From assembly GCF_000468495.1 (NCBI RefSeq), contig NC_022444.1, positions 2,085,737 to 2,136,346 on the forward strand: a stretch of 50,610 nucleotides of DNA, read 5' to 3'. Below are positions 20,071 through 45,559 of this stretch, piece by piece; position 1 is the stretch's first letter, and each line of letters starts with the position of its first letter. The position numbers were made by a program, and so were the translations under genes. This DNA comes from Megalodesulfovibrio gigas DSM 1382 = ATCC 19364. GTDB lineage: Bacteria > Desulfobacterota > Desulfovibrionia > Desulfovibrionales > Desulfovibrionaceae. The notes beneath the pieces are model-generated. The model saw nothing but the letters and a program-made list of their open reading frames with translations, did not search any database and was not told the origin of the DNA.

Positions 20071-20118
20071 TGGTCGGGATGAGAGGATTTGAACCTCCGA
20101 CCCCCTGAACCCCATTCA
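20071..20118 (-). other. Attachment site: 3' part of tRNA-Pro(GGG)
   Basis: Read on the minus strand, the sequence runs from an anticodon loop ATGGGGT (anticodon GGG) through the variable loop and the T arm GGAGGTTCAAATCCTC to CATCCCGA and CCA. The 5' half is absent: no CGGGATG acceptor arm lies at the expected 76-base distance. A tRNA 3' end next to a tyrosine integrase is the classic att junction of an integrated element. The intact tRNA-Pro should lie at the other end of the element, outside this window. Confidence 0.85.
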
Positions 20119-20250: not shown

Positions 20251-21312
20251 CTACTTCACGCGATGGATGACAGCCTTCTGCTTCGGGCCCGGGAGCGCCG
20301 GTTTCTTGGCAATGGCCTGGGCCAGTTCACCATGCAGGAGGTGGCGATAGTGCTTCAGCGTTGTCTGAACCGTCGAATGCCCCAACAGCTTGGAGACCAA
20401 TGCCACGTCTGCCCCTTCCTTGATCATCACAGAGGCGAACAGGTGCCGGATGTCGTACATGCGAACAGGGTAGGGGATGCCGGCCCGTTCCACGGTGGAG
20501 GTCAGGCTGCGGCGAAATTTCTTCACGGGCTTGCCCTGGTATTCGATGACATGGGTGCACCTCGACCGCTGGCGCATGACCAGCAGCCGGGCGCGGAAGT
20601 CTTCCGTGATGGGCATCACCCTGTCGGCGCCTTCTGTCTTCGTGCCTGGGACGTGGATGGTCAGCCCGACAAAATCCACGTGCTCCCACCTGAGGGCCAG
20701 CAGCTCGGATTCCCCCGGGCGTGCGCCCAGTTCCCACATGACTTCCAGCGCCCACGCGAGGTGCTCCGGGGCATGCTCCTTGATGCGGGCCAGGTCTTCA
20801 AGCGTGAGCTGCAGGGGGCGCCGGTCCTCGCGGGCCTTCTTCCAGTGCGCCAGCGGTGATTTGCCGGTCAGCTCCTGCATGATCCCAAAGCGGAAGATGG
20901 CCTGAAGGTAGCTCAGATAGCGGTTGATGGTGGCGGGGCTGCGTCCTGGCCACGCGGCATTGACCAGGGCCAGCACGTCCGCATAGGCAAGGTCGTCCAC
21001 GGGCCGCGTGGCAAGGCGGGGCAACACCACACCGTTGAGCAGTTGCCCCAACTCCTTGCGCCAGCGCTCGCTTTTCCCCTGGCTCTTGGCGTGGTCCAGG
21101 TAAAGCTGGGCCAGCTCATCCAGGTGCATCCGTCCGCGGCGCTGGGGCTTGAGCGCGCCCTTGGCCTTGAGCAGCCGGATTTCCGCATCGCGCACCTTGG
21201 CACGCGTGCGCCCGGCCTCGCCCACGCCCGTGTACTCCTTCTCGGGGCTCTTCTGCCCGGGCAGGTAATACTGGACGAACCAGACGCCTTTCTTGGTTTG
21301 GTAGATGGGCAT
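20251..21312 (-). CDS. int: Tyrosine-family site-specific integrase
   Basis: The 353-residue protein (from MPIYQTKKG) inserts and excises the island at tRNA-Pro. It has an N-terminal arm-binding region, a SAM-like core-binding domain (about residues 63-160) and the catalytic domain with R198 (ARPGES), K225, R289-H290, H312 (LLGHS) and Y322 (KHYRH). The first position of the HxxRH box is tyrosine (YDIRH), a tolerated variant. Its 3' end faces the att site 130 bases away. The start is uncertain: ATG at 21324 is also possible, and neither has an ideal binding site. Confidence 0.95.
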   Translation of the reverse strand: MPIYQTKKGVWFVQYYLPGQKSPEKEYTGVGEAGRTRAKVRDAEIRLLKAKGALKPQRRGRMHLDELAQLYLDHAKSQGKSERWRKELGQLLNGVVLPRLATRPVDDLAYADVLALVNAAWPGRSPATINRYLSYLQAIFRFGIMQELTGKSPLAHWKKAREDRRPLQLTLEDLARIKEHAPEHLAWALEVMWELGARPGESELLALRWEHVDFVGLTIHVPGTKTEGADRVMPITEDFRARLLVMRQRSRCTHVIEYQGKPVKKFRRSLTSTVERAGIPYPVRMYDIRHLFASVMIKEGADVALVSKLLGHSTVQTTLKHYRHLLHGELAQAIAKKPALPGPKQKAVIHRVK

Positions 21313-21471
21313 AGGGATGAGCATACTCCAGGTGGAACGAGTGGACAATGAGAATGCGGGCCGTGGGGGGTGCCTGCCCTGCCTGGGGATTGTCTGTATT
21401 GGGGATTGCGGTTTGTTGCGGCTTCTGCCATTTCCTCTGAAACGGGAACCAGCAGTAGGTGAGGGATGTCG

Positions 21472-24315
21472 ATGGGGAACCAGCTCGAAGCCAAGTGCCC
21501 AGCCTCAATCTGGCGCAAGGATGTCACGGGCGACTTGAAAGTCGTGCTCAAGCATGTGGTGAAGGGGGCATTCAACATTGCCCGCCTGGATCCTGAAAAC
21601 ATTCTCACCCAGGGCACGGAAGCGCTCAAAGATTTCGGCCTGAAGGATTCGGCCGGGGAGTGCCTGCTCCAGTTTCTCCTTTCCGCCGCAACCATGGCGG
21701 CGCAGAAGTTGCTATTTGATACCCCTCGTCTGCAACATACTCCCCATGAAGCCCGTAGCGACCTGGCCACTGCCATGGCCGAAGCCATTGCCAAGGAGGC
21801 GGAACAACAGACCCTTGCAGTGGACCAGGCATTTCTCGAAACCCCGCGGGAGCATCTGCCATTCAGCGCGGTGCATACCGTCTTGCAGCCTTGGCTACAT
21901 GATCGTCTGGGGGACAAACTGGCCGCGGAGTGGACGGTCACGCGCTTTGCCGTCACCTTCGAAGCCATGTGGTTTGCTGTCTGTGCGAAGGATCTGGAGC
22001 GGTACACGACCATTCTCAAGGGCGTCGGGGTTTCAGAAAATGACATCGCCTCCAGGGCCACGCCGAACGCGCTTGCGTGGAACCGGTACAACGCCCTGCT
22101 GCAGCTGCAGCCCCGGCTGCCCATGATGGGTGAAGCCTTTGGGTTGGACGCCGTCTACATTTCGTTGCGGGGCTATTACGAGGGAAATGACACGGATAAC
22201 CAAAAACAGCAGCATGTGGTTTGGCTGGACAAATCCATTGATGCTTGGTTGGCATCTCCCAACATACGCGATGCCCTTCGCATCGTCTGCGGCGGTCCGG
22301 GAAGCGGCAAGTCCTCCTTCACCAAGATGCTGGCGGCGCGTCTGGCAACATCGTATGCCACCACTGGCTGGCGGGTGCTGTTTGTGCCATTGCATAGACT
22401 GCAGAACCTGGAACGATCTTTTGACAAGGCGCTCAGGGGCTATGTGCAGGCAGCCGAATTGCTGCCGTTCGACCCCTTGAACGAATCACGCGATCCCCTG
22501 CTGGTCATCCTGGACGGGCTTGATGAGCTGGCCATGGAAGATGGCACCCGTGGGGTCGAGGCTGCCAAGCTGTATGTTGCCAAGGTCATCAAGAGTTTGA
22601 AAGCATATAACTCACAGCGGGCACGGCTGAAGGTGTTGGTATCAGGTCGGGACCTGGTGGTTCAGGGTGCAACGCAGGAGCTGCGTCAGGCGAATATGGG
22701 GACGGACCAGTCCATGCTGCATGTCTTGCCATATGTAATCACCTCCAAAGATGTCCCCAACGCAGTGGATCCTGATGACCTGCGAGGCAAAGACCAGCGC
22801 ACGGTGTGGTGGGAGCACTACGGCAAGGCCACAGGTCGTGCGGCGACTGGCATGCCTGAGGAACTTGATACGGAAGGGCTCTTCGAAATGACCAGACGGC
22901 CATTGCTTGGCTATCTGGTCGCTCGCCTCCATGCCCGAACCCCCCTCAGCCAGGAGGAAAGCCGGGTCAGCATTTACGAAAAACTGCTTGCGGAAGTCCA
23001 CAGGCGGGATTGGGACGAGGGAGGGCCTGGGCATCCCTTGGACAAGGACTCTTTTTTCCAGGTGTTGGAGGAAGTTGCCGTGTGCGTCTGGCACAATGGC
23101 GCAGGCATCGCGACACTCAAGGACGTGGAAAAAAGGGTCTGCGGGAATTCCCAGTGCGTCAAGGCCTTGGAGACGATTGCCGATGGGGCAAAGAAACAGT
23201 CCCTTGGGACGATTTTGCTGGCATTCTATTTTCGGCACGGCCTTGGTGACACCTCCACCATCGAATTTACGCACAAGACCTTTTGGGAGTATTTGACAGC
23301 CAGAAGTATTGTGAGGACGTTCCGACAGATGCATGAAGAGAAAATGAACCTTGGTTCCGCAAAGTGGAACCCTCAAGCCTCCTTGGAAACGTGGATTGGG
23401 CTTTGCTGTGCCCAAAACATGGACCAAGATATGTATGATTATGTCAAGGAACTTGTCGCTGAGGAGCCTCAAAAAACACTGGTGAAGTGGCAAGAGCTGT
23501 GCGCTGCGCTCTTGAGCTATACGGTGGTTCATGGGATGCCCATGGGGGCTCGACCGGAGAGCCTATCTTTCAAGGCCCAGTGCCAGCAGGCTCGCAATGC
23601 AGAAATAGCGTTGCTGGCCATGCATTGTGCTTGTGCAACGAAGACGCAGCAGCGGACAGCGCTCCCATGGCCTGATGAACAAGGCTTCCACGCATGGTTG
23701 GCATGGCTTGAGCCAGTGTGGGGGACTGGTTTGACAGGTCGCCTACTGCAGGGATTGGTGCTTGAGGAACAGAACTTACAGGGGGAAAACCTCAACCATG
23801 CGGACCTCAGCCGTGCGGACCTCCGCGGTGCGGACCTCCGCCGTGCGACCCTCAGCGGTGCGGACCTCCGCGGTGCGGACCTCAACGGTGCGGCCCTCGG
23901 CCTTGCGGCCCTCGGCCTTGCGGACCTCGGCCTTGCGGCCCTCGGCTTTGCGGACCTCCGCGGTGCGGACCTCCGCCGTGCGAACTTCAACGGTGCGGAC
24001 CTCAGCGGTGCGGACCTCCGCGGTGCGGACCTCGGCCGTGCGGACCTCAGCGGTGCGGACCTCAGCGGTGCGGACCTCCGCCGTGCGACCCTCCACGATG
24101 CGATAGTTACTAATGCGTTGTTGAAGTACGCCAACGTCGAATGTGAGGCATTAGCCAAAGCATACTTTGACGACCCCGCCCTGAGTGAGGCCCTTGCCAT
24201 TGGCATAGACCTCGCTGAACTCCCCGAGTACCGCATCGGCAGCCCCACGTCGGAGCAGGTTGCGGCACTGGAAACGCTGGTGACGAAAACCAAGGCCGCC
24301 GAGGCCCAAAAATAA
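21472..24315 (+). CDS. NACHT-type NTPase with pentapeptide-repeat C-terminus
   Basis: The 947-residue protein has a helical N-terminal region (about 1-250, no match I know), a P-loop NTPase with Walker A GGPGSGKSS (K280) and Walker B LLVILDGLDELA (D348), a helical arm, and about 21 pentapeptide repeats of the ADLRG type (about 768-880) with a short helical cap. The DGLDE Walker B and the layout are those of NACHT/STAND proteins, many of which are anti-phage sensors; here the repeats take the place of the usual sensor repeats. The position beside the integrase fits island cargo. ATG at 21472 has AGGTGAG 8 bases upstream; ATG at 21466 is too close to it. Confidence 0.85.
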   Translation: MGNQLEAKCPASIWRKDVTGDLKVVLKHVVKGAFNIARLDPENILTQGTEALKDFGLKDSAGECLLQFLLSAATMAAQKLLFDTPRLQHTPHEARSDLATAMAEAIAKEAEQQTLAVDQAFLETPREHLPFSAVHTVLQPWLHDRLGDKLAAEWTVTRFAVTFEAMWFAVCAKDLERYTTILKGVGVSENDIASRATPNALAWNRYNALLQLQPRLPMMGEAFGLDAVYISLRGYYEGNDTDNQKQQHVVWLDKSIDAWLASPNIRDALRIVCGGPGSGKSSFTKMLAARLATSYATTGWRVLFVPLHRLQNLERSFDKALRGYVQAAELLPFDPLNESRDPLLVILDGLDELAMEDGTRGVEAAKLYVAKVIKSLKAYNSQRARLKVLVSGRDLVVQGATQELRQANMGTDQSMLHVLPYVITSKDVPNAVDPDDLRGKDQRTVWWEHYGKATGRAATGMPEELDTEGLFEMTRRPLLGYLVARLHARTPLSQEESRVSIYEKLLAEVHRRDWDEGGPGHPLDKDSFFQVLEEVAVCVWHNGAGIATLKDVEKRVCGNSQCVKALETIADGAKKQSLGTILLAFYFRHGLGDTSTIEFTHKTFWEYLTARSIVRTFRQMHEEKMNLGSAKWNPQASLETWIGLCCAQNMDQDMYDYVKELVAEEPQKTLVKWQELCAALLSYTVVHGMPMGARPESLSFKAQCQQARNAEIALLAMHCACATKTQQRTALPWPDEQGFHAWLAWLEPVWGTGLTGRLLQGLVLEEQNLQGENLNHADLSRADLRGADLRRATLSGADLRGADLNGAALGLAALGLADLGLAALGFADLRGADLRRANFNGADLSGADLRGADLGRADLSGADLSGADLRRATLHDAIVTNALLKYANVECEALAKAYFDDPALSEALAIGIDLAELPEYRIGSPTSEQVAALETLVTKTKAAEAQK
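23787..24095 (+). repeat. 15-bp tandem repeats coding for pentapeptides
   Basis: About 20 units related to GCGGACCTCCGCGGT are repeated in frame. They encode A-D/N-L-x-x pentapeptides, which form a square beta-helix. The units GGCCTTGCGGCCCTC (about 23898-23950) are a distinct sub-block. High DNA identity between units suggests recent expansion. Confidence 0.9.
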
Positions 24316-24319
24316 CCCC

Positions 24320-24547
24320 TCACACCTGCACCGGCTTCCATTCCATTGCCCTCGGCCGTCTGGCCGTGGGTGTGGGTTTGAAGTCTTCGGGGCGTTCCAT
24401 CCAGGCGTCCAGGTCGGCCAGGCGGTAGCGGGTTCGCTTGGGGCCGTAGCGGGGCAGGGGGTATTGCCGCAGCAGGGCGCCGAACTGGCTCTCGGAGTAG
24501 CCGCAATATTCGGCGGCCTCCTTGAGGTTGAGGTAGGGGCCCTGCAT
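24320..24547 (-). CDS. Excisionase/AlpA-like helix-turn-helix protein
   Basis: The 75-residue protein has the layout LNLKEAAEYCGYSESQFGALLRQ followed by PRYGPKRTRYRLADLDAWM, a MerR-like winged helix used by AlpA regulators and excisionases. Its likely jobs are control of the integrase or of the early operon. The ATG at 24547 overlaps the stop of the gene before it (ATGA). It is the last gene of the minus-strand early operon and converges with the NACHT gene, with 4 bases between the stops. Confidence 0.75.
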   Translation of the reverse strand: MQGPYLNLKEAAEYCGYSESQFGALLRQYPLPRYGPKRTRYRLADLDAWMERPEDFKPTPTARRPRAMEWKPVQV

Positions 24548-24816
24548 CAGCACCACCTGTCGGCCAGGGTCGTCGCACTGCCGGCAGCGCGGATGGCGTC
24601 CACGGCCTCGGTGCCGGCCGGGGTGAGCACCCAGCCGCAGCGGCCGCGGCAGGCCACACCCGCTACCAGTCCCCGGTCACTCAGGGCGTACAGGGTGCGC
24701 TCCACCTGACCGGGCGTGCGGCCCAGGGCGGCGGCGAGGGTTTCGGCCAGCGAGCACCCGGCCGCGTCGATCCCCGTCAGCACGTCTTCCTGGGGCGCGG
24801 AAAGGGGGCGGCTCAT
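24547..24816 (-). CDS. Small winged-helix-like protein
   Basis: The 89-residue product has a helix pattern compatible with a winged helix (LAETLAAALGRTPGQVERTL, then LYALSDRGLVAGVACRGRCG). It may be a regulator of the island. It overlaps its upstream neighbour by 4 bases and its downstream neighbour by 3. The DNA-binding role is inferred from pattern only. Confidence 0.6.
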   Translation of the reverse strand: MSRPLSAPQEDVLTGIDAAGCSLAETLAAALGRTPGQVERTLYALSDRGLVAGVACRGRCGWVLTPAGTEAVDAIRAAGSATTLADRWC

Positions 24817-25192: not shown

Positions 25193-26212
25193 CTAGGCGG
25201 TGGCTGTTTCGAGTGCGGCGGGATGGGCTTCGGCTTCTGCGGCTTCGGGGGCGTCCAGGTCTTCCATGGGCAGGAGGAAGCCCAGCTCCCGGGCGAGGGC
25301 TTCGGGCAGGGCGAGGCGGATTTCATCGCCCGGTTCCAGGGCCTGCAGGTCGCTGAAGACGAGGGCCTGTTCCTTGGCGATTTCGGCCTGGACGCCTTGG
25401 GCGGCGTCGTAGACGTAGAGGGTGCCGTCGGCCTCGTCGTCAAACTCCAGGGCAAAAAGCCGCCATCCGGGCGGGATGCCAGGGCCTTTCGAAGGCGCCG
25501 GGATGGCTGGCGGTGCGGGCGGGGCGTCGTCGTCCTTCATGCCCCCTGCCGGCTGGGGGATGCGACCGTTTTCCGGGATGGGCTTGCACTGCAGGGGGAA
25601 CTGGCGTTCCTCTTCCGTGAGGGGCCGGCGCTTGATGACTTCACGCGTCTCAATCTCCAGGAACTGCTTCTGGTTCAGGTCGAAGTTCCGGACCTCATAG
25701 CAGCGCAGGGTGCGCATTTCCTTGCCGCGCCTGATGCGGTGGGCCAGGGTGGTGGAGTCCTTTTCCACCACCTTGATGCGGCTGTTGAAGTGGTCCACAT
25801 GGCTCTTCTTCTCGGCCTCCAGGTCTTCGATGTGGACCACCAGCTTGGCCAGCTCCTGGCCCATGGCCTCCAGCTCGGCGCGGGTGAAGATGTGCTCCAC
25901 TTCCACGTCGGTGGTGCCTTCGAAGTGCAGGGTGTGGGGGCCGGCGTGGGGCTGGGGGTCATCTTCCCCGTCGCCGTCCGCGTCATGGGCTTCGCTGGCG
26001 TCGGCCTGTCTCGCCTGTCCCGCCTGTCCCGCCTGTCCCGCCTGTCCCGCCTGTCCCGCGTGTTCCGCGTGTTCCGCGTGTTCCGCGTCGGCCAGGGGCT
26101 CCAGCTCGGGGAAGGCCGGGGTTTCCTCGGCCTGGGCAACGTCCTGGGGATCATCCCAATACCCGACCGGGAAGCCGTCTTCGTCCAGCTCGCCTTCGGT
26201 CCAGCGGATCAC
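25193..26212 (-). CDS. Phage-type hypothetical protein with low-complexity repeat
   Basis: The 339-residue protein has an acidic N-terminus, a run of EHA and GQA triplets (about residues 44-70), a coiled-coil centre (ELAKLVVHIEDLEAEKKSHV, about 118-137) and a region TLRCYEVRNFDLNQKQFLEI seen in phage proteins of unknown role. The C-terminal part is acidic and alanine-rich. The ATG overlaps the stop of the gene before it by 4 bases (ATGA). A GGGGCC-GCGA-GGCCCC hairpin lies in the 143-base gap before the next gene (25166-25181). Confidence 0.7.
   Translation of the reverse strand: MIRWTEGELDEDGFPVGYWDDPQDVAQAEETPAFPELEPLADAEHAEHAEHAGQAGQAGQAGQAGQARQADASEAHDADGDGEDDPQPHAGPHTLHFEGTTDVEVEHIFTRAELEAMGQELAKLVVHIEDLEAEKKSHVDHFNSRIKVVEKDSTTLAHRIRRGKEMRTLRCYEVRNFDLNQKQFLEIETREVIKRRPLTEEERQFPLQCKPIPENGRIPQPAGGMKDDDAPPAPPAIPAPSKGPGIPPGWRLFALEFDDEADGTLYVYDAAQGVQAEIAKEQALVFSDLQALEPGDEIRLALPEALARELGFLLPMEDLDAPEAAEAEAHPAALETATA
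26004..26084. repeat. Nine-bp tandem repeat, nine units
   Basis: The units are one GCCTGTCTC, five GCCTGTCCC and three GCGTGTTCC in a row. They keep the frame of the overlapping gene and encode (EHA)3(GQA)5RQA. Such repeats change length easily by slippage. Confidence 0.95.
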
Positions 26213-31471: not shown

Positions 31472-32194
31472 TCACAGCATTTGCAGGTCACGACCAAGCC
31501 ACTTCACATGGCCGATCACTTCAAAATCTACAGACTCATCGTGTGGATTTATTTCTATATCCCTATATAATTGCTTGTCATGGTTGTCGCTCCTCAAAAT
31601 AATAAGCCCCTTTTCACGGAAAAGGCGCTTTACCATAAGTTGCCCATCATGTCGCACAGCGTAAATATCCCCGCTTGTTGTGAACAGCCTTTCATCTTGG
31701 CGAGTCGAGACCAACAACATGTCGCCATTCGTTATTGTCGGTTCCATTGAATGCCCACGGGCATCCATCAACACGATAGAATCCAGATTCCCCTTTTTTA
31801 CCAACCAGTCTTTCCTGAATGCGTACAAATCTTCATATGAAGAGTCAAACTCAAGGCCACCATCTCCCCCGACAGGACGAGCAAAAACTTTTGGGACAAA
31901 CTCAAAATTTTCTTTAATTTCTTTGCCTTCGCTTAGTATCTCTACGGTGTCTATCCCTAATTTGTTCATATAGCGAAACAAGTCGATTGCTGCTGTTTTT
32001 TGCCCGCCACGCTCACCGTCGATCCACCGCTTGATCGTTGCTGGATTCACCCCCCCGAGCCTTTTCCCAATTGACGCAAGGGTCTCGCCGTCATCTCTGA
32101 GCTTTTTGAGCGCATCGATAACAGCAGACCATGCCAACAAAAAAACCTTGTCCGCGTTCATAGTTGCCGCTGTTAGCAGTTTAGCATTTGTCAT
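31472..32194 (-). CDS. CI-like repressor (HTH plus S24 peptidase-type domain)
   Basis: The 240-residue protein has an N-terminal helix-turn-helix (ETLASIGKRLGGVNPATIKR, residues 38-56) and a LexA/S24 C-terminal domain with catalytic S149 (GHSMEP) and K189 (LMVKRL). Such repressors keep the element silent and are inactivated on DNA damage by self-cleavage; whether this one has a cleavable linker is unclear. It diverges from the Cro-like gene across an operator at 32223. The start at 32194 is a choice; ATG 32161 would still keep the HTH. Confidence 0.88.
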   Translation of the reverse strand: MTNAKLLTAATMNADKVFLLAWSAVIDALKKLRDDGETLASIGKRLGGVNPATIKRWIDGERGGQKTAAIDLFRYMNKLGIDTVEILSEGKEIKENFEFVPKVFARPVGGDGGLEFDSSYEDLYAFRKDWLVKKGNLDSIVLMDARGHSMEPTITNGDMLLVSTRQDERLFTTSGDIYAVRHDGQLMVKRLFREKGLIILRSDNHDKQLYRDIEINPHDESVDFEVIGHVKWLGRDLQML

Positions 32195-32210
32195 GCGACC
32201 ATAATTCCTG

Positions 32211-32239
32211 TTGACTTTTGTTTTGTCTCGCGACAAAAT
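32211..32239 (+). promoter_or_regulatory. Promoter of the Cro-like gene
   Basis: TTGACT is followed after 17 bases by CAAAAT. Transcription would start at or next to the ATG at 32246, so the mRNA may be leaderless. The operator at 32223-32236 fills the spacer, where bound repressor would block RNA polymerase. Confidence 0.5.
32223..32236. promoter_or_regulatory. CI/Cro-type operator, copy 3
   Basis: TTGTC-TCGC-GACAA is embedded in a longer palindrome, TTTTGTCTCGCGACAAAA (32221-32238). It lies between the divergent repressor and Cro-like genes and repeats the half sites found at 28984 and 29016. Confidence 0.8.
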
Positions 32240-32245
32240 CAAGCT

Positions 32246-36700: not shown

Positions 36701-37018
36701 ATGGGCACCATTCACGAACTCGCCTCCATCACATCCAAGGGACAGATCACCCTGCCGAAGTCTATCCGGCAGCTGCTTGGGGTGGGTGCTGGCGACAAGG
36801 TCGCCTTCGAACTGGACGGCTCGCGAGTGGTTGTCAGCCGCGCCGGGGAGCAGCCGCATACGGACCCGGCCATCGTGGGTTTTCTCACGCTGCTGGAGCA
36901 GGACATCCGCAGTGGCCGGCATCTCGGCACACTGCCCGAGGGGTTGGCGCAATCGATGCTTGCGGCTGCAGACGCATCTCCCATGGAGGATGAGATCGAA
37001 GGCGACGTGGCACTGTGA
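36701..37018 (+). CDS. prlF: PrlF-like AbrB/SpoVT-fold antitoxin
   Basis: The 105-residue protein starts with a swapped-hairpin AbrB domain (SITSKGQITLPKSIRQLLGV, then DKVAFELDGSRVVVSRAG) and has a C-terminal tail for toxin binding. In E. coli PrlF neutralises YhaV and represses the operon. AAGGAG lies 8 bases before the ATG. The toxin gene follows with overlapping stop and start. Confidence 0.9.
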   Translation: MGTIHELASITSKGQITLPKSIRQLLGVGAGDKVAFELDGSRVVVSRAGEQPHTDPAIVGFLTLLEQDIRSGRHLGTLPEGLAQSMLAAADASPMEDEIEGDVAL

Positions 37019-37476
37019 TGCAGCGGCACGGCTGGACCCTGCTTTTCCATGACTGCCTGATCGAACAACTGCAGCGACTTGAGCAGGCGGCAGCGCGTGC
37101 CATGGCCCGGAACCCCGAAGAGGCCGCCTCCAACGCCAACGTCAAGCTGTTCCGCGCCCTGTCCCGCCTCATCCTGGAGACCATCCCCGACGATCCCAAT
37201 CGCGAGGAGTACCGGCAAGGCAACACCATGGGGCCTACATTCCGGCACTGGCGGCGTGCCAAGATCGGCAGGCGTTTCCGGCTATTTTTCCGGTTTGACT
37301 CCAACGCCAAGGTCATCGTGTTCGCGTGGGTGAACGACGAGCAGACCCTGCGCTCGGCCGGCAGTAGGTCAGACCCGTATGCTGTTTTCCAAAAGATGTT
37401 GCACTGTGGGCATCCTCCTGACGACTGGGCGGCATTGGTCAAGGCCAGCAAGGAAGACTGGCCCCCAACGGAGTAG
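37018..37476 (+). CDS. yhaV: YhaV-type ribosome-dependent mRNA interferase toxin
   Basis: The 152-residue protein matches the YhaV pattern throughout: WTLLFHDCLIEQL, the NVKLFRALSRLILETIPDDP region and the catalytic strand FRHWRRAKIGRRFRLFFRFD followed by VFAWVNDE. YhaV has a RelE-like fold and cuts mRNA. The length is normal and all core blocks are present, so it should be active. The ATG overlaps the TGA of prlF (TGATG); a GTG three bases earlier is an alternative start. Confidence 0.92.
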   Translation: MQRHGWTLLFHDCLIEQLQRLEQAAARAMARNPEEAASNANVKLFRALSRLILETIPDDPNREEYRQGNTMGPTFRHWRRAKIGRRFRLFFRFDSNAKVIVFAWVNDEQTLRSAGSRSDPYAVFQKMLHCGHPPDDWAALVKASKEDWPPTE

Positions 37477-37955: not shown

Positions 37956-39044
37956 ATGGCAACTTCTCATTCAGCAAATAATCTAGATCCTATGACGCTT
38001 CGGGCTGTTGATTTCTTCTGCGGAGGGGGAGGGATGACATGCGGTTTACGCATGGCTGGAATCAATGTTCTTGGAGGGTTGGATATTGCGGCCGATTGCA
38101 GGGAAACATACGAGTTCAACAACCGTCCCTCGCGCTTCGTAGAGCAGGACGTTGCCGGACTTGACGCGGAGGCCTTGGGCAGCATTTTCGACATCCGCCG
38201 AGACGCCCCCAACTTGATTTTCGTGGGCTGCAGCCCGTGTCAGTATTGGAGCAAGATTCGCACGGACCGCGGCAAAAGTGAGAAGAGTGCCTTTTTGCTC
38301 AAGGAATTTCAACGGTTCATAGACTCCTTTTTGCCGGGATTCGTCGTGCTGGAAAATGTTCCCGGCCTGCGAAGCAATCCGCAAAGCTACCTCCCCCACT
38401 TCCGAGACTTCCTGAAAAACTCCGGCTATTCCTTTGCCGACGATGTCATCGATACGAGCCGGTACGGCGTGCCCCAGCATCGTCATCGGTATCTTCTCGT
38501 AGCCTCGCGTACATGTGCAACCGTAACCTTGCCAATAGGTGATACACCTACAGTCAGCGTGAGGCAGGTAATAGGCGAGAAAAACGGCTTCCCGCGCATT
38601 GCAGCTGGCCATGCAGACAATACAAACTTCATGCATACCTCAGCTGAACTCTCAGCTTTAAATCTGCGTCGCATCCAGACGACGCCGCACGACGGCGGGG
38701 ACAGGCTTAGTTGGAAGGACGACCCGGAGCTGCAAATCGACGCCTACAAGGGCAGGGATGACATCTTTAAGGACGTTTATGGTCGCATTCGATGGGATAC
38801 GCCGGCACCGACCATTACCACCCGGTTTAACAGCCTGTCCAACGGCCGTTTCGGCCATCCAGAGGAAGATCGGGCCCTATCTCTTCGGGAAGGAGCTTGT
38901 CTGCAAACATTTCCGAAAAGCTATCGCTTCTTCGGGCCGAGCCGCAACTCCGTAGCCCGGCAAATCGGCAACGCCGTCCCCCCGTTACTGGCCAGACACA
39001 TCGGAAAACATCTTATAAGGTTGAGTCGTCATGGCGACATTTAA
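37956..39044 (+). CDS. DNA cytosine-C5 methyltransferase
   Basis: The 362-residue protein has motif I (VDFFCGGGGMTCGLRMAGI), the catalytic loop motif IV with C95 (GCSPCQYWSK), motif VI ENV (133-135), motif VIII (QHRHRYLLVAS) and motif X (RQIGNAVPPLLARHI). It should methylate cytosine in double-stranded DNA; the target site is unknown. It overlaps the GHKL ATPase gene by 14 bases, so it belongs to that three-gene operon. No classical endonuclease is in the operon, so any restriction would have to come from the other two proteins or from elsewhere. Confidence 0.95.
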   Translation: MATSHSANNLDPMTLRAVDFFCGGGGMTCGLRMAGINVLGGLDIAADCRETYEFNNRPSRFVEQDVAGLDAEALGSIFDIRRDAPNLIFVGCSPCQYWSKIRTDRGKSEKSAFLLKEFQRFIDSFLPGFVVLENVPGLRSNPQSYLPHFRDFLKNSGYSFADDVIDTSRYGVPQHRHRYLLVASRTCATVTLPIGDTPTVSVRQVIGEKNGFPRIAAGHADNTNFMHTSAELSALNLRRIQTTPHDGGDRLSWKDDPELQIDAYKGRDDIFKDVYGRIRWDTPAPTITTRFNSLSNGRFGHPEEDRALSLREGACLQTFPKSYRFFGPSRNSVARQIGNAVPPLLARHIGKHLIRLSRHGDI

Positions 39045-41970
39045 GGCCCGCGCTCGGGCCTTGGACATGTTAGGACGCCAACAGATCGCGGGCATCCCCA
39101 CGGCTATTAGTGAGCTCTTCAAAAATGCGCACGACGCATACGCAGATCGGGTGGAGGCGGACTACTATCGAACCGATGGACTGTTCGTCCTGAGGGACAA
39201 CGGTCTGGGCATGACCGAGGAGGAGTTCGTCCAGCGCTGGCTGACGCTGGGCACGGAGAGCAAGATCACCTCCAAGAACATGGCAAAACCGCCCGTGGAC
39301 CCGTCCAAGCCATACCGGCGATTGCTTGGTGAAAAGGGCGTGGGGCGTTTGGCCATCGCCATCATTGGTCCCCAGGTGCTGGTGCTGACCCGCGCCAAAC
39401 GGGATGGAATGCTACAGGACACTGTGGCTGCCTTCATCCATTGGGGGTTGTTTGAATGCGCGGGGGTGGATCTGGACCAGATCGAAATTCCCGTCCGTAC
39501 TTTTTCGGGGGGCGTCCTGCCGAACGCCGCCGACCTTCAGTCCATGGTACGCCTCTTCGAGGACAACCTCGCACGGCTACGAAACGTCATGGACGACAAG
39601 GTGCATGACCGAATTCTGTCCGATCTCCGGCAGTTCGACCTGGACCCCTCAGAAGTGGACACTTACCTGCCGGACATGAGCCTTACCGGCAACGGACACG
39701 GCACGCATTTTTTCATCAAACCAGCTTCGGACATGCTGGCTGCAGATATCGAGGATGACGGGGGCGACCGCCCGTCGAACCTCGTAAAGCTGCTTGGTGG
39801 CTTTTCCAACACCATGACGCCGGGGCACACGCCGCCGGTCATCAAACCTGCCTTTCGCGACCACAAGACCGACGATCTGTCCGACGACCTCATTGAGGAA
39901 GGCAAGTTCTTTACGCCCGAAGAATTCCGCAACGCCGACCACCAAATCGCGGGTCGGTTCGACGAATACGGCCAATTTCGGGGCTCTGTTTCCGTCTATG
40001 GTCAACCATTCCATGACCATATCGTATCCTGGCAGGGCGGTCACGGATTCCCGACGCGATGCGGCCCCTTCCGTATTCAGGTGGCCGTTGTACAGGGGGA
40101 GTCGCGGGCTTCGACATTGCAATTAGAAGACTGGAACGCCATGTGCTCCAAGATGGATCGTTTCGGCGGCCTGTACATCTATCGTGACGGCATCCGCGTT
40201 CTCCCCTATGGCAACAACGATTTTGACTTTCTGGACATCGAGAAAAACAGAACCAAGAAAGCCAGCTACTATTACTTCTCCTTTCGGCGCATGTTCGGTG
40301 TGGTGGAGATCGACAGCACGGCCAACGGAGGATTGACAGAAAAGGCCGGCCGTGAAGGGTTTCGCGAGAATGCAGCCTATCGGGAGTTTAAATCCATCCT
40401 CAAGAATTTTTTTGTCCAACTGGCAGCCGATTTTTTCCGGGAAGAATCGCCGGAGACCAGATACTACGACACCAAGATGGAGTACGACAGACAGGACAAA
40501 TTACGAAAGAATAGGGAAAAGCAGGTCGGCGCTAAAAGACGCAAACTGACAGAAGAGTTGGCTACGTTTTTCGACCGATACGATGCAGCCGAACCACGCA
40601 ACAGAGTCGACGCGGTACTTGACCAGCTCAGGCGCGAACTGGACTATGCGGCCTCATTGGACGATCCAGCTGAAGCGGCGAGGGTGTTCCTCGATCTGGA
40701 GGAACAGGCCAAAAAGGGCATTGCGGAGTTGGATGCCCGCTACAAAGTGGCCCGGCCGCGCGGCGTCGGACTGCCGAAAAACCTGACCAGAGATTGGGAG
40801 AATTACGTCAACGCCGTCGGGGAACTGCAAGAAACCCTTTTGATACCAGCCCGGAAGCGAATTGACGAACTCGTCGGCGAACATGCTGCCCGAGCCAGAC
40901 TCATGCTGGATCGCCGCTTGCAACTCGAACGATCGCTGAAGTTGTTGTCCAACGAGACCCAATCCAAGACCGCTCGCGAGCGCAAGGCCACCCACGAAAG
41001 CCTGGACACGGTGTCCAAGGGCGTGGTCGAGGCCGCACGGTCCAGCACCAAGCGCGTCAAGCGGACCCTGGATGAAGTGTTCGCCGAATTCGCCGCCTTG
41101 GATATGACTGACTTGCCTGCGTCCGAAGCCATGGCTACTCGCGACCGTCTTGAAACGGCGCTGCAGACTACACGTGATAGCGAACTTAATTTCCTGCAGA
41201 CTATCCGTGAGCAGTTGGAGGCCATCGACCTCAGTGGTGAGGGTGGTTCACTGGACCAAATGGAGGCCGTGGAGCAACGGGCCATCGCCTTGGAGGAGCA
41301 GGCGGATGTCGATCTGCAACTTACACAGTTGGGCATGGCCATCGAGGTCATCAACCATGAGTTTGACGCGAACATCCGGGCAATCCGAGCCAATGTCCGC
41401 CGCCTCAAGTCCTGGGCGGATGTGAATCCAGACCTTCAGGACTTGTATGCCGGGATCAGGAACAGCTTTGAACATCTGGACGGATACCTTACCCTTTTCA
41501 CGCCGTTGCATCGCCGGCTCTACCGAAAGGAAATTGTTATCCGGGGTCGCGACATCGCAAAATTCATAGCAGACCTGTTCTCCGCGCGGTTCGAAAGGCA
41601 CAAGGTCACGCTGGAATCCACGGATGCATTCCTAAATTTGGAAATCAAGGGATATCCTTCGACGTTCTACCCTGTGTTCGTCAATCTTGCGGATAACGCC
41701 ATCTATTGGCTCAAGGATCGTCCAATGCGCCACATCACGCTGGACGTGCGTGAAGGTCGCATCTTGGTCGCCGATACCGGCCCCGGTATTCCTGAACGGG
41801 ACCGAACCTCGGTGTTTGAACTCGGATTCTCCCGAAAGCCCGGAGGACGGGGGATGGGCTTGTACATTTCTCGTGAGGCTCTGTCTCGAGCGGATTACGA
41901 TCTGGCTATCGCCAACACAAATGCCGGCACCACGTTCACCATCGCACCAAAAGAGGAACAGCAATCATGA
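39031..41970 (+). CDS. Protein with two GHKL ATPase domains (MORC/Hsp90-like plus histidine-kinase-like)
   Basis: The 979-residue protein has an N-terminal GHKL domain with N box ELFKNAHDA (N32), DNGLGM (D56-M61) and the lid GEKGVGRLA (100-108), like MutL/Hsp90/MORC proteins. A long middle region follows, mostly helical and coiled coil (about 480-760). The C-terminus is a second, histidine-kinase-like ATPase: an H-box-like INHEF (H776), N box NLADNAIYW (N889), VADTGPGIP (D915) and GRGMGLYIS. GHKL ATPases of this kind are known partners in restriction-modification loci. It overlaps both neighbours and is followed by a receiver protein, so phosphotransfer from H776 is plausible but not shown. 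Confidence 0.85.
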   Translation: MATFKARARALDMLGRQQIAGIPTAISELFKNAHDAYADRVEADYYRTDGLFVLRDNGLGMTEEEFVQRWLTLGTESKITSKNMAKPPVDPSKPYRRLLGEKGVGRLAIAIIGPQVLVLTRAKRDGMLQDTVAAFIHWGLFECAGVDLDQIEIPVRTFSGGVLPNAADLQSMVRLFEDNLARLRNVMDDKVHDRILSDLRQFDLDPSEVDTYLPDMSLTGNGHGTHFFIKPASDMLAADIEDDGGDRPSNLVKLLGGFSNTMTPGHTPPVIKPAFRDHKTDDLSDDLIEEGKFFTPEEFRNADHQIAGRFDEYGQFRGSVSVYGQPFHDHIVSWQGGHGFPTRCGPFRIQVAVVQGESRASTLQLEDWNAMCSKMDRFGGLYIYRDGIRVLPYGNNDFDFLDIEKNRTKKASYYYFSFRRMFGVVEIDSTANGGLTEKAGREGFRENAAYREFKSILKNFFVQLAADFFREESPETRYYDTKMEYDRQDKLRKNREKQVGAKRRKLTEELATFFDRYDAAEPRNRVDAVLDQLRRELDYAASLDDPAEAARVFLDLEEQAKKGIAELDARYKVARPRGVGLPKNLTRDWENYVNAVGELQETLLIPARKRIDELVGEHAARARLMLDRRLQLERSLKLLSNETQSKTARERKATHESLDTVSKGVVEAARSSTKRVKRTLDEVFAEFAALDMTDLPASEAMATRDRLETALQTTRDSELNFLQTIREQLEAIDLSGEGGSLDQMEAVEQRAIALEEQADVDLQLTQLGMAIEVINHEFDANIRAIRANVRRLKSWADVNPDLQDLYAGIRNSFEHLDGYLTLFTPLHRRLYRKEIVIRGRDIAKFIADLFSARFERHKVTLESTDAFLNLEIKGYPSTFYPVFVNLADNAIYWLKDRPMRHITLDVREGRILVADTGPGIPERDRTSVFELGFSRKPGGRGMGLYISREALSRADYDLAIANTNAGTTFTIAPKEEQQS

Positions 41971-43535
41971 CCGATTTTGCCGCATTGTCGAAAGACGTTT
42001 TGGCCGGCTTCCTCCAGACTGTCGTAGTTATCGATGACCAGGCGTATGATGTTCAAAACGAAAAAACTGCCATTCCTCTCAAATCACCTTCACGTGGCCA
42101 GGCGAAGGCGGACGATTCCTCCGAAGACGCGGCCAGGACCCAAGTCGCGCATTCGCTTGATACATCTCAGCTTGTGAGCGCGTTTGCATGTAAGGGGCTG
42201 GTTTGCGCCGTCATCGCGCCGCAAAAGGACGAGCCTGTCGAGCAGCGCTTGGGTAGTGTGGTGGATCGCTGTGACATCGTCATCATTGATTGGCAAATGT
42301 TCAACGACGATGGCAAGCAGACCCTTTCGCTTATCAAGCATCTCTGCGAGGGAGACTGCGGGAATCGGCTGCGCCTGCTATGCGTCTACAGTGGCGAGCC
42401 CGATCTCGAGAAAATATCGGACCAAATTACTGGAAAAAAATTTGGATTTACTTGCCACGACAACAATAAACTCCTTTTACGAAAGGATCATGTTATCGTG
42501 ACGATTCTGGGGAAATCTGTCGTACCCGTCGAACGCCTTGCAGACGAGCTATTTAATTGTTTTTCGATTTTTACAAGGGGATTGCTCTCGAACGCGGTGT
42601 TGGCGGCTTTGACTGGTATCCGACGCAACACACACCGCATCATCCAGAAATTTGATTCATCACTGGACCAAGCTTATATTTCGCACCGTATTTTATCAGT
42701 TCCTGTTGATAATTCTGAGAGTGAAATATTATCAGTTATATGTTCTGAGCTGGAATCTGCAATCCATCAATCACCAAAAATTCCTTACATCAATAGCGGC
42801 GCTATACAGGCGTGGATGAAGTCAGATGCAAGAAAAAATTTCAATTATGATGAGTTAAACGTCAACCCAAATTTCGCTCCTCAAGCCCTGGAGAAACTGA
42901 TAGAGTTTGGCATAAACCATAGCGACCATTCTCACGATAATGTATATCAAAGTATTTGTTCCAAAGTACGTAGCAAAAAATTTGTAAAAGAATCTAAGAT
43001 GACATTAATCCTGGGCGGAAAAAAACCTAAGGATGAAGATCGGCGATTCGCCATCCTATCTACACTTGAGACACGCTATGAGGATTACGTGCCGAAACTT
43101 ACTTTGGGTTCGATCGTACATGATGGGGAACGCTACCTCCTGTGCATCCTACCACGATGCGACAGTGCCAGAGTCCCAACGAAAGGACGTAATTTCTTAT
43201 TTATCCAGCTTGTCGATAAATCTCCACCACAAATTGATATCATTGTAAAAGACAACAATAACTTAGTTGATCTCGGCATAAGCATGCACCCGTATGACAC
43301 CATTATTATCAGGTTTGCTGCATCAACTGCCGGTCAGCCGGTTAAGGCTGTCGAAAAAGACGGAAGCTGGGTGTTCAAAATTAAGAGCGAGGACGACAAT
43401 GTTGAAACCGTGCGTTGGGTGGCAGACGTTAAGCCCCAGGTCGCCCAGGCTTTCGCCAATGAATACGCGTCCAAGGTCAGTCGTGTCGGTGTAAACAAAT
43501 CCCAATGGCTTCATCAATTGGCCAATAAAGAATGA
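41967..43535 (+). CDS. Receiver-domain protein with unknown C-terminal effector region
   Basis: The 522-residue protein begins with a divergent receiver domain: acidic pair D23-D24 (VVVIDDQAYD) and a candidate phosphoacceptor D108 (IVIIDWQMFNDDG), with a long insert between them (about 30-85). The remaining about 340 residues match no domain I know; they contain YVPKLTLGSIVHDGERYLLC and RCDSARVPTKGRNFLFIQLV, which look like a beta-rich fold. It overlaps the GHKL gene by 4 bases (ATGA). The context suggests it is the output of the GHKL protein. Its 3' part is more AT-rich than the rest of the operon. Confidence 0.75.
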   Translation: MTDFAALSKDVLAGFLQTVVVIDDQAYDVQNEKTAIPLKSPSRGQAKADDSSEDAARTQVAHSLDTSQLVSAFACKGLVCAVIAPQKDEPVEQRLGSVVDRCDIVIIDWQMFNDDGKQTLSLIKHLCEGDCGNRLRLLCVYSGEPDLEKISDQITGKKFGFTCHDNNKLLLRKDHVIVTILGKSVVPVERLADELFNCFSIFTRGLLSNAVLAALTGIRRNTHRIIQKFDSSLDQAYISHRILSVPVDNSESEILSVICSELESAIHQSPKIPYINSGAIQAWMKSDARKNFNYDELNVNPNFAPQALEKLIEFGINHSDHSHDNVYQSICSKVRSKKFVKESKMTLILGGKKPKDEDRRFAILSTLETRYEDYVPKLTLGSIVHDGERYLLCILPRCDSARVPTKGRNFLFIQLVDKSPPQIDIIVKDNNNLVDLGISMHPYDTIIIRFAASTAGQPVKAVEKDGSWVFKIKSEDDNVETVRWVADVKPQVAQAFANEYASKVSRVGVNKSQWLHQLANKE

Positions 43536-43601: not shown

Positions 43602-43938
43602 TGGCCAAACGATACGGCGTCAGTGAGTCCGCCGCGCTGCTGCGTTGGGCGGCAATGAAATCCCTCGGCTCGGCATTGATTGTTCCTGGCAAGCCATGGC
43701 ATAATGGCACCGTCGATAGTTGGACTGGCAAGAATCACGAAAATTGCCTATCTATTGAGTGGTTTCACAGCGGGGCAGAGGCGATGACAATCATTGAGGG
43801 ATGGCGGCGGCACTACAACACCGTGCGCCCGCACTCCAGCCTGTGCAACTTGACCCCGACGGCCTACAAAGAGACCGCGACGGGCCAAAACCGGAGCGCG
43901 ACTCTCAAGTAATCAGTGGTCCGAAGAAGGCCGGCAGG
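43602..43938 (+). mobile_element. IS3-type relic, transposase C-terminus and element end
   Basis: The plus strand encodes PGKPWHNGTVDSWTGKNHEN, then WFHSGAEAMTIIEGWRRHYN and VRPHSSL, ending at TAA 43910-43912. This is the last part of the IS3-family rve domain. The catalytic glutamate position is aspartate (VDSW for VESF), and the frame lacks the rest of the domain, so it is dead. The end of the element is nearly identical, in inverted orientation, to 34413-34550. The first 70 bases of the open frame (from 43532) are not transposase. Confidence 0.85.
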
Positions 43939-44437
43939 TCGCCTCCCGCTCCAACACAGCCGCAATCCGGGCGGCGACCGCTTCGGCATCCTGCCGCAGC
44001 TCGTGCTCCCAGACGCGGATGACCTGCCAGCCCGCTACGGCGAGCTGCGCATTGATCAGAGCGTCACGGTCGACATTGCGCTGGATTTTGGCCTCCCAGA
44101 ACGGCTGGTTCGTTTTGGGCGGCCTGTAGTGTTCCGGGCAACGGTGCCAGAAGCAGCCATCCACAAAAACAACCACCCGGCGCGAGGGGAAGACGATGTC
44201 CGGCCTCCCCGGCAGACCGTGCCCGATGCGGTAGCGGTAGCCCATGCGCCAGAGGCGTTGCCGGAGCATGCGCTCCGGCCTGGTGTTTTTCCCTTTGATG
44301 GCGGCCATGCAGCGCCGGCGCTGTTCCCGGGTCAGGACATCCGTCCGGGCGCGGCCCTGGCCTTGGCTCTCCTGATCGTGGCGATGGTCGCCATGATCAG
44401 GACCGTTCGCGGTGTCATGGCCGTTACCGCCCTGCAT
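43913..44437 (-). CDS. vsr: Very short patch repair endonuclease (Vsr)
   Basis: Vsr nicks DNA at T:G mismatches made by deamination of 5-methylcytosine. The 174-residue protein has the family blocks MAAIKGKNTRPERMLRQRLW, GRPDIVFPSRRVVVFVDGCF with the catalytic aspartate, and WHRCPEHYRPPKTNQPFWEA. It lies 3 bases after the DUF3883 gene, in the same direction as the second methyltransferase, which it probably serves. The last nine residues (ATCRPSSDH) and the stop are read from IS3-type sequence, so the original C-terminus was replaced, though the catalytic core is intact. Confidence 0.93.
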   Translation of the reverse strand: MQGGNGHDTANGPDHGDHRHDQESQGQGRARTDVLTREQRRRCMAAIKGKNTRPERMLRQRLWRMGYRYRIGHGLPGRPDIVFPSRRVVVFVDGCFWHRCPEHYRPPKTNQPFWEAKIQRNVDRDALINAQLAVAGWQVIRVWEHELRQDAEAVAARIAAVLEREATCRPSSDH

Positions 44438-44440
44438 CCA

Positions 44441-45559
44441 TTAGTCCTCTTCGTCCTCTGGCAGGCGGATTTCAATCTCAGGGCCGAACAGAAGCACCGC
44501 CGGAGAGATGGAAACCCCGTCCGGGGTGACACCTTCCGGAAGTTCGGAAAACGTGTGGAGCAGGGAATCTGCGAACCCGGCCATGTCCTCCGCAATCCTG
44601 AGCCTGGCCGTCCCCGCTTCCAGGGCATAGACCCGGTAGAGATCGTACCGCCGGCCTGCATCGGCCATTTCCTGAAGCTCAGCCATGGAGATGTGCAGCG
44701 TCCGCTCAAAGGGGCCGGCAGTTGATTTGACGTCCAGCCTGATCGTGTTCCCGGCCGCGTCCTCCACAGAGAAATCGTAGGGGGCGACGGCATTCAAGTC
44801 CGACACCCAGCGGTGACTCCGGATCACGCCCTGGCGGGCCTGTAAGGCAAGCCAGCCGTCGATCAGGGCCTCGCCCTCCCGCCCGACGGCCTCCGCCCTG
44901 AGCCGGGCACGCTGCAGGGCCTCCTGGTCCATCGTGGTCCCGGAGCGGCGGCGGAACAGTCGTTCCACCCCTGCCACGCCCCCCAGGGCGGCATCCTCAA
45001 TGGCTTCACCCAGGGTGAACTCAAGCGCCGGGTGGGAATCCGGAAGCGCTGCGGCGTCAATGAGGCTGCCCAGTTCGGAAGAGTCCAGGGGAATCATTTT
45101 CCGGGAACCCAGGCGCTCCGCAAGGATTCCATGAAGCGTGGCGTCTTCCGGCACAGCTGCGGCGACAAACAGCAGGCGCGCGGCAGTGGGGAAGACATTG
45201 CCGGAGAAATCGAAAACAACAAAGTCGCCGGGCTGCAGGGGGTCAAACCGTGCCCCGGCGGCAGCTTTTGGGACGAGCTCGCCGTTGAGCCGCCAGTTCT
45301 TGTAGGTGCTGCGTTTGACAATCTTGCGCTGGAGGCGCAGGGCAGTATGGATCCCCGGCCCCAGCAGTACCAGGTCCATGCCCAGGTATCCAGACCGCCC
45401 CTCCGGCGTATCCGGCAGCGCGGGGAACAGCGCTCCGACAAACACATCCTGGTTCAGATTGATGGACTTCTGATGCCCGGCCTGGAGGACCTCATGCTGG
45501 TGCTGGAAAAAGGTGAGGTCCGAGCGGGTCAGCTGTTTCAAGGCGATTTTACCGGCCAC
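44441..45559 (-). CDS. DUF3883-type protein, candidate restriction nuclease
   Basis: The 372-residue protein has an N-terminal domain of about 180 residues (KSINLNQDVFVGALFPALPD, GDFVVFDFSGNVFPTAARLL) and a C-terminal DUF3883 region. The latter has the PD-(D/E)xK-like pattern: E in REGEALIDGWL, D in APYDFSV, and D276-V-K278-ST. This fold is typical of restriction endonucleases. It lies between a cytosine methyltransferase and vsr on the minus strand and overlaps the methyltransferase gene by 11 bases. It is probably the nuclease of that restriction-modification system; no cleavage site can be given. Confidence 0.8.
   Translation of the reverse strand: MAGKIALKQLTRSDLTFFQHQHEVLQAGHQKSINLNQDVFVGALFPALPDTPEGRSGYLGMDLVLLGPGIHTALRLQRKIVKRSTYKNWRLNGELVPKAAAGARFDPLQPGDFVVFDFSGNVFPTAARLLFVAAAVPEDATLHGILAERLGSRKMIPLDSSELGSLIDAAALPDSHPALEFTLGEAIEDAALGGVAGVERLFRRRSGTTMDQEALQRARLRAEAVGREGEALIDGWLALQARQGVIRSHRWVSDLNAVAPYDFSVEDAAGNTIRLDVKSTAGPFERTLHISMAELQEMADAGRRYDLYRVYALEAGTARLRIAEDMAGFADSLLHTFSELPEGVTPDGVSISPAVLLFGPEIEIRLPEDEED

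What the first reader, a model, noticed from the sequence alone, without database searches (positions are those of the whole stretch)
21472..24315. NACHT ATPase with a pentapeptide-repeat tail next to the integrase
Walker A (K280) and the DGLDE Walker B are clear. The C-terminal about 21 pentapeptides are encoded by nearly identical 15-bp units, a sign of recent expansion. Bacterial NACHT proteins are often anti-phage sensors; a pentapeptide beta-helix, which can mimic DNA, would be an uncommon sensor or effector surface. The N-terminal 250 residues match no effector I can name.
Basis: partly seen in the sequence, partly recalled or inferred. Interest (0 to 1): 0.7.

Follow-up and report, generated by a model that had tools for sequence, protein, structure and literature searches.

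The report
Prophage NLR-like ATPase with hypervariable tail
A prophage in the sulfate reducer Desulfovibrio gigas carries one gene for a bacterial relative of animal and plant immune receptors; its repeat-built tail, in the wider family, evolves far faster than the rest of the protein, as expected of a recognition surface for invaders.

Summary
ORF 21466-24315 (+; better start 21472) encodes NNH3-like helical domain – NACHT ATPase (Walker A K280 in reader numbering, DGLDE) – pentapeptide solenoid (23-25 units, 20 near-identical at DNA level). The genome is D. gigas ATCC 19364. The gene lies between integrase and excisionase of a ~60-kb prophage inserted at tRNA-Pro(GGG).

It is not a one-off. 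It belongs to a widespread, mostly single-gene family: 80 best loci kept of 324 confirmed across bacteria and Methanothrix archaea, nearly all with pentapeptide tails. The 'unnameable' N-terminus is Pfam NNH3, below cut-off here but well above it in relatives. A second member in the same genome sits beside Shango and partial type I-G cas genes; a family-level relative sits beside Hachiman in a conjugative-type element. Family-wide, enrichment of immediate neighbours for known defence genes is weak.

The main new finding: the tail is hypervariable. Relatives with bodies at least 85% identical have tails whose outward-facing residues match no better than tails with shuffled repeat order (0.56-0.57 vs 0.54). 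This resembles fungal HET NLR repeats. Best reading: a STAND immune sensor whose solenoid recognises and whose helical N-terminus acts on oligomerisation. Phage defence is inferred, not shown. DNA mimicry is not supported.

The parts
21472..24315 (+). NNH3-like / NACHT / pentapeptide-repeat STAND ATPase gene (947 aa from ATG 21472; 949 aa from ATG 21466)
21472..22266 (+). N-terminal all-helical domain (about residues 1-265 of the 949-aa form), NNH3-like, no catalytic signature
   Evidence: PF22735 21 bits at 45-227, relatives 64-83 bits; AlphaFold pLDDT 81, no PDB or BFVD match at E<=0.001
22282..22650 (+). NACHT ATPase core with Walker A GGPGSGKSS and Walker B LVILDGLDE (residues 273-395)
   Evidence: PF05729 above cut-off; invariant residues
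22651..23769 (+). post-NACHT helical region with conserved EFTHK[ST]FxEYLxA motif
23770..24144 (+). pentapeptide-repeat beta-solenoid, 25 units of 15 bp (20 near-identical, 23800-24099)
   Evidence: solenoid in model matches 2j8k and designed PRPs
24145..24312 (+). C-terminal cap, similar in the Solidesulfovibrio relative
20251..21348 (-). tyrosine integrase of the prophage
   Evidence: PF00589, phrog_1
20072..20118 (-). 3' fragment of tRNA-Pro(GGG): left attachment site (attL); similar fragment at L122:10088 and intact tRNA-Pro at L123:10667-10743
24320..24556 (-). AlpA/Xis-like excisionase, 3' neighbour
   Evidence: phrog_66 5.6e-7
31472..32242 (-). CI/LexA-like prophage repressor
   Evidence: phrog_4, phrog_6201

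Best explanation
A prophage-borne, single-gene bacterial NLR-like (STAND) immune sensor. Shown: three-part architecture with an intact NACHT nucleotide site; a helical N-terminus without conserved catalytic residues; a pentapeptide beta-solenoid that turns over much faster than the rest of the protein in relatives; residence beside the integrase in a ~60-kb prophage. Inferred: the solenoid recognises a phage- or invader-derived molecule, or a guarded host protein; recognition releases auto-inhibition, ADP is exchanged for ATP, NACHT domains oligomerise, and clustered N-terminal helical domains act directly (perhaps on membranes) or as adaptors, halting or killing the cell. The prophage gains exclusion of competing phages. 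Repeat duplication and homogenisation with changes at outward-facing residues re-tunes specificity, as proposed for fungal HET-D/E NLRs.
For: NACHT and NNH3-NACHT-PPR architecture in window protein and relatives. Full model pLDDT 82.6 matching NLRP3, NLRC4 and PRP solenoids. Near-invariant N-terminal positions mostly hydrophobic or aromatic, no catalytic set. Prophage: int, xis, repressor, terminase, portal, tape measure, tail genes, att fragments at tRNA-Pro(GGG). Relatives: L011/L017 beside Hachiman HamAB, between integrase and VirB-type genes; own paralogue beside Shango and type I-G cas genes; three viral contigs L102-L104. Hypervariable tail: bodies >=85% identical, outward identity 0.56-0.57 against 0.54 unit-shuffled; L054/L061 bodies 95% identical, tails 40% at outward positions. 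Window tail: 0 synonymous and 15 nonsynonymous steps among 15 unit types, p=0.009. Precedents: PMC12169576, PMC12222747, PMC4986451.
Against: No phage phenotype is known to me for any NNH3-NACHT-PPR protein. Known defence genes are only weakly enriched next to family members. Some Nostoc members are chromosomal in conserved surroundings. No stand-alone pentapeptide family was used as a control, so fast turnover may be intrinsic to such repeats. The zero-synonymous result is one of about 23 tails tested, without correction; OWN2 and most others do not show it and two show the opposite. Many relatives are short-read assemblies, which can misassemble near-identical repeats (PMC12222747). The window protein alone is below the NNH3 cut-off.
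Confidence: 0.55

Rival explanations
1. A STAND signalling or regulatory ATPase of cellular physiology, not of phage defence, which a prophage happens to carry; the tail binds host partners.
For: Conserved chromosomal surroundings in several Nostoc relatives; weak defence-gene enrichment around the family; a stand-alone PRP, HetL, acts in heterocyst regulation (PMC8145042).
Against: Patchy occurrence: 3 of 150 genomes in the order by protein search, 1 of 395 in the phylum sample by NNH3 model. Prophage, ICE-like and plasmid locations. A hypervariable tail is odd for a fixed physiological partner.
Confidence: 0.22
2. Fast tail turnover is neutral: 15-bp units slip and convert because any register folds, and the tail is only a spacer or scaffold while sensing lies elsewhere.
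For: Strong DNA-level homogenisation; near-neutral balance of synonymous and nonsynonymous steps in most tails, including the D. gigas paralogue; no stand-alone PRP control.
Against: Window tail has no synonymous differences, with changes mainly at unit positions expected to face outward; tails are kept in nearly all members; the C-terminal cap is kept in the Solidesulfovibrio/Acidocella pair.
Confidence: 0.19
3. The pentapeptide solenoid mimics DNA, as in MfpA and Qnr, and binds topoisomerase or a nuclease as sensor or effector surface.
For: Same fold: Foldseek matches to MfpA and QnrB1.
Against: Tail net charge -3 over 115 residues; family median -0.13 per unit, range -0.83 to +0.44; far below the Qnr and MfpA family cut-offs; rapid change of surface residues.
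Confidence: 0.04

Closest known systems
Pfam NNH3 (PF22735) NACHT proteins with pentapeptide tails (Nostoc, Solidesulfovibrio and others), annotated 'pentapeptide repeat-containing protein'
   Same: Same order of domains, same motifs, single gene; the Solidesulfovibrio aerotolerans copy is 38-41% identical over NTD-NACHT with a similar C-terminal cap
   Different: The D. gigas N-terminus is divergent (21 bits, below cut-off 27); its repeats are more homogeneous in DNA, after codon control, than those of the six other members compared
bacterial NACHT anti-phage proteins (bNACHT, e.g. bNACHT25 clade 6, bNACHT02/12 clade 14; PMC12169576)
   Same: Central NACHT module in a three-part protein; single-gene defence is the precedent
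   Different: Those have PD-(D/E)XK effectors with NCH1, or short SNaCT C-termini; here a helical N-terminus and pentapeptide solenoid; clade placement not tested, no phage data
fungal HET-D/HET-E NLRs (PMC12222747) and fungal NLRs with high internal repeat conservation (PMC4986451)
   Same: NACHT-type NLRs with C-terminal tandem repeats homogenised in sequence, with some variable sites
   Different: WD40, ANK or TPR repeats and other effectors; diversifying selection is reported there, here only suggested
Qnr/MfpA/HetL pentapeptide proteins
   Same: Solenoid fold
   Different: Stand-alone, no ATPase; Qnr and MfpA act as DNA mimics (PMC8145042), this tail is nearly neutral
DGR-diversified NACHT/STAND sensors (PMC10907252)
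   Same: STAND protein with a hypervariable putative sensor
   Different: There variability comes from a retroelement acting on CLec domains; here from tandem repeat turnover; no retroelement was sought

Membership tests
bacterial NACHT STAND NTPases | NACHT domain over curated cut-off | tested here: met
   PF05729 29.6 bits vs 26.7
bacterial NACHT STAND NTPases | intact Walker A and B | tested here: met
   GGPGSGKSS, LVILDGLDE; invariant columns G279 G281 K282 S283 D350 D353 E354
bacterial NACHT STAND NTPases | three-part architecture with NLR-like central fold | tested here: met
   AlphaFold model, Foldseek to NLRP3/NLRC4 at E about 1e-8 to 1e-6 with low overall TM-scores
bacterial NACHT STAND NTPases | anti-phage activity | not testable with these tools
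   needs a bench assay
bNACHT clades of Kibby et al. | placement in a defined clade | not tested
   reference alignment not held
Pfam NNH3 (PF22735) | score over curated cut-off | tested here: not met
   window protein 21.0 bits vs 27
Pfam NNH3 (PF22735) | homology of this region to proteins that pass | tested here: met
   aligned relatives 64.3, 74.0, 82.1, 82.7 bits; 38-41% identity to the Solidesulfovibrio member
systems modelled in PADLOC-DB 2.0.0 (incl. Avs) | match to a PADLOC model | tested here: not met
   best E 0.0019, generic AAA match; whether a bNACHT model is held is unknown to me
Qnr/MfpA gyrase-protecting PRPs | family cut-off | tested here: not met
   MfpA 36.5 bits vs 360; Qnr 33.5 vs 240
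Qnr/MfpA gyrase-protecting PRPs | strongly acidic DNA-like surface | tested here: not met
   net charge -3 over 115 residues; no surface potential computed

The most novel reading that the evidence does not exclude
Bacteria and their prophages use a family of NLR-like proteins whose pentapeptide solenoid is a fast-diversifying recognition surface, rebuilt by repeat duplication and homogenisation, with specificity set by outward-facing residues: a bacterial counterpart of the hypervariable NLR repeats of fungi and plants.
Probability: 0.35. Interest if true: 0.85.

Novelty: new variant of a known kind. Interest (0 to 1): 0.58.

Why it matters
No biochemical role is known for most pentapeptide proteins (PMC8145042), and the sensing side of bacterial NLR relatives is largely open. 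A widespread family in which near-identical bodies carry unrelated solenoid surfaces makes both questions testable by tail swaps: does the tail set phage specificity? If so, solenoid repeat turnover would be a way for bacteria to generate immune-receptor diversity. The literature library held no paper found by these searches that describes this tail turnover.

Tried and rejected
Single-protein scans of genome and viral collections found nothing; only an alignment did. Profile search of PDB sequences: no match. N-terminal model against PDB and BFVD: no match at E<=0.001, so no named effector fold. A conserved partner gene was sought by clustering 867 neighbouring ORFs: the recurrent ones are largely cyanobacterial chromosomal genes, no universal partner, so I treat it as single-gene. 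Defence-neighbour test: nearest genes against distant ones, 124 against 114 proteins; 79 against 36 PADLOC models hit at E<=1e-12, but nearly all by one protein each and with redundant models: suggestive, not a test. ORFs there were picked by a simple longest-ORF rule, so some are spurious. Exact direct repeats of 14 bp or more from the integrase flank to the window's right side and the next 19 kb: none; the partner sites lie further right. DNA mimicry rejected on charge.

Full report
IDENTITY AND OBSERVATION. The window lies on a 3,693,899-base contig, the length published for the Desulfovibrio gigas ATCC 19364 chromosome (PMC4287179). ORF 21466-24315 (+) is open and complete. NACHT scores over its cut-off; pentapeptide repeats are unmistakable. 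A profile built from six members finds no relative among PDB sequences.

REPEATS. Twenty units (residues 779-878) share 82% mean pairwise nucleotide identity; redrawing synonymous codons from local usage gives 61% (sd 1.8), shuffling codons within the repeats 70% (sd 0.8). Codon choice depends on position in the unit (Arg CGC at position 4, CGT at position 5), which points to shared descent or conversion of the DNA rather than to codon bias. On a minimum spanning tree of the 15 unit types there are 15 nonsynonymous and no synonymous steps (expected 28% synonymous, p=0.009), at unit positions 1 (4), 2 (1), 3 (5) and 4 (5) counted from 0, i.e. mainly those expected to face outward. This was one of about 23 tails tested without correction; the paralogue and most others look neutral by this measure and two have an excess of synonymous steps. 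I treat it as a hint.

N-TERMINUS AND STRUCTURE. Residues 45-227 match Pfam NNH3 weakly (21.0 bits, cut-off 27), but relatives that align with it score 64-83. In 48 members the near-invariant N-terminal positions are mostly hydrophobic or aromatic, with no catalytic set. AlphaFold gives an all-helical bundle (pLDDT 81) with no PDB or BFVD match at E<=0.001. The full model (pLDDT 82.6, pTM 0.77) matches PRP solenoids and NLRP3 and NLRC4, the latter with low overall TM-scores.

CONTEXT. The integrase (20251-21348) and an AlpA/Xis-like gene (24320-24556) flank the gene; a CI-like repressor is at 31472-32242. A 3' fragment of tRNA-Pro(GGG) lies at 20072-20118; a second fragment lies at chromosome ~2,165,587 and the intact tRNA at ~2,185,666. 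Between the first two are terminase, portal, head-tail adaptor, tape-measure and tail genes. So the gene is in a ~60-kb prophage, in tandem with a second, 20-kb element with its own integrase-like gene.

FAMILY. Nearly all have pentapeptide tails; most exceptions have truncated contigs or short tails. Within Desulfobacterota they are rare and patchy. D. gigas has a second member (1073 aa) next to Shango SngABC and partial type I-G cas genes. A relative in another genome of the same family lies between an integrase and conjugation-type genes, beside Hachiman HamAB. Viral contigs L102-L104 carry it near integrase, repressor or regulatory genes (read by eye). But family-wide, known defence genes are at best weakly enriched next to members, and some Nostoc members sit in conserved chromosomal neighbourhoods. 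No partner gene is universal.

TAIL TURNOVER. In pairs with bodies 85-90% and 90-100% identical, outward positions of aligned tail units match at 0.56 and 0.57; shuffling the order of units within each tail gives 0.54 (22 pairs). Positional orthology in the tail is therefore essentially erased while the body is kept. Examples: L054/L061, bodies 95% identical, 28 units each, 40% outward identity; Solidesulfovibrio L022 and Acidocella MAG L023, about 86% identical bodies over 461 residues, different repeats, conserved C-terminal cap. Unit counts among Nostoc orthologues with ~90% identical bodies run from about 9 to 31; contig ends, interrupted runs and short-read assembly can lower such counts, a problem documented for fungal NLR repeats (PMC12222747), but collapse would not change the residues of the units.

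INTERPRETATION. Shown: architecture, family, prophage location, DNA-level homogenisation and tail hypervariability. Inferred: sensing by the solenoid, ATP-driven oligomerisation (from the STAND family), N-terminal output, and phage exclusion. Bacterial NACHT proteins with other ends are anti-phage (PMC12169576), and fungal HET NLRs have homogenised repeats with diversifying sites in the sensor (PMC12222747, PMC4986451). The main weakness is the missing control: stand-alone pentapeptide proteins might turn over as fast. DNA mimicry is disfavoured by a near-neutral tail.

VERDICT. Observation confirmed; interpretation partly supported. The architecture's parts are known to Pfam, but it differs from the bacterial NACHT proteins with published phage data that I could read, and tail turnover was not found described in the library searched. 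Hence a new variant of a known kind, function unproven.

Noticed in passing
L019:7378-10599 (chromosome ~2,556,877-2,560,098): Second NNH3-NACHT-pentapeptide protein (1073 aa) of D. gigas, between partial type I-G cas genes (Cas7g, Cas56g) and a Shango system (SngABC).
   Followed up: partly
L118:334-2337 (near chromosome 2.8-5.1 kb): A 667-aa protein with apparent membrane segments, a run of HNATEAS-type repeats and a long pentapeptide tail; another repetitive PPR tail in the same genome.
   Followed up: no
39031-43535: Two-gene unit: double HATPase/HEF_HK protein and Response_reg_2 protein directly after a cytosine methyltransferase (37956-39044); possibly an uncharacterised defence or signalling unit on the prophage.
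   Followed up: no
43913-47027: Vsr nickase, NOV_C-domain protein and a second cytosine methyltransferase in a row: looks like a type II restriction-modification unit.
   Followed up: partly
37015-37476: YhaV-type toxin (PF11663, 192 bits) on the prophage.
   Followed up: no
L122:17056-18537: A flagellin-like gene inside the 20-kb element in tandem with the prophage at tRNA-Pro(GGG).
   Followed up: no
L017:4128-7489: Complete Hachiman HamAB next to a NACHT-pentapeptide gene between an integrase and conjugation-type genes.
   Followed up: yes
L022 and L023: Bodies about 86% identical between Solidesulfovibrio and an Acidocella MAG (different phyla) with different tails: recent transfer, or contamination or misbinning of the MAG contig.
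   Followed up: partly
L025, L026, L032, L033, L041, L045, L048, L059, L063, L065, L089: A ~157-aa gene of unknown function lies about 0.5-0.9 kb upstream in many Nostocales relatives; probably conserved chromosomal synteny.
   Followed up: partly
26004-26086: Nine-base tandem repeat (9 copies, 95% matches) inside a phage gene on the minus strand.
   Followed up: no
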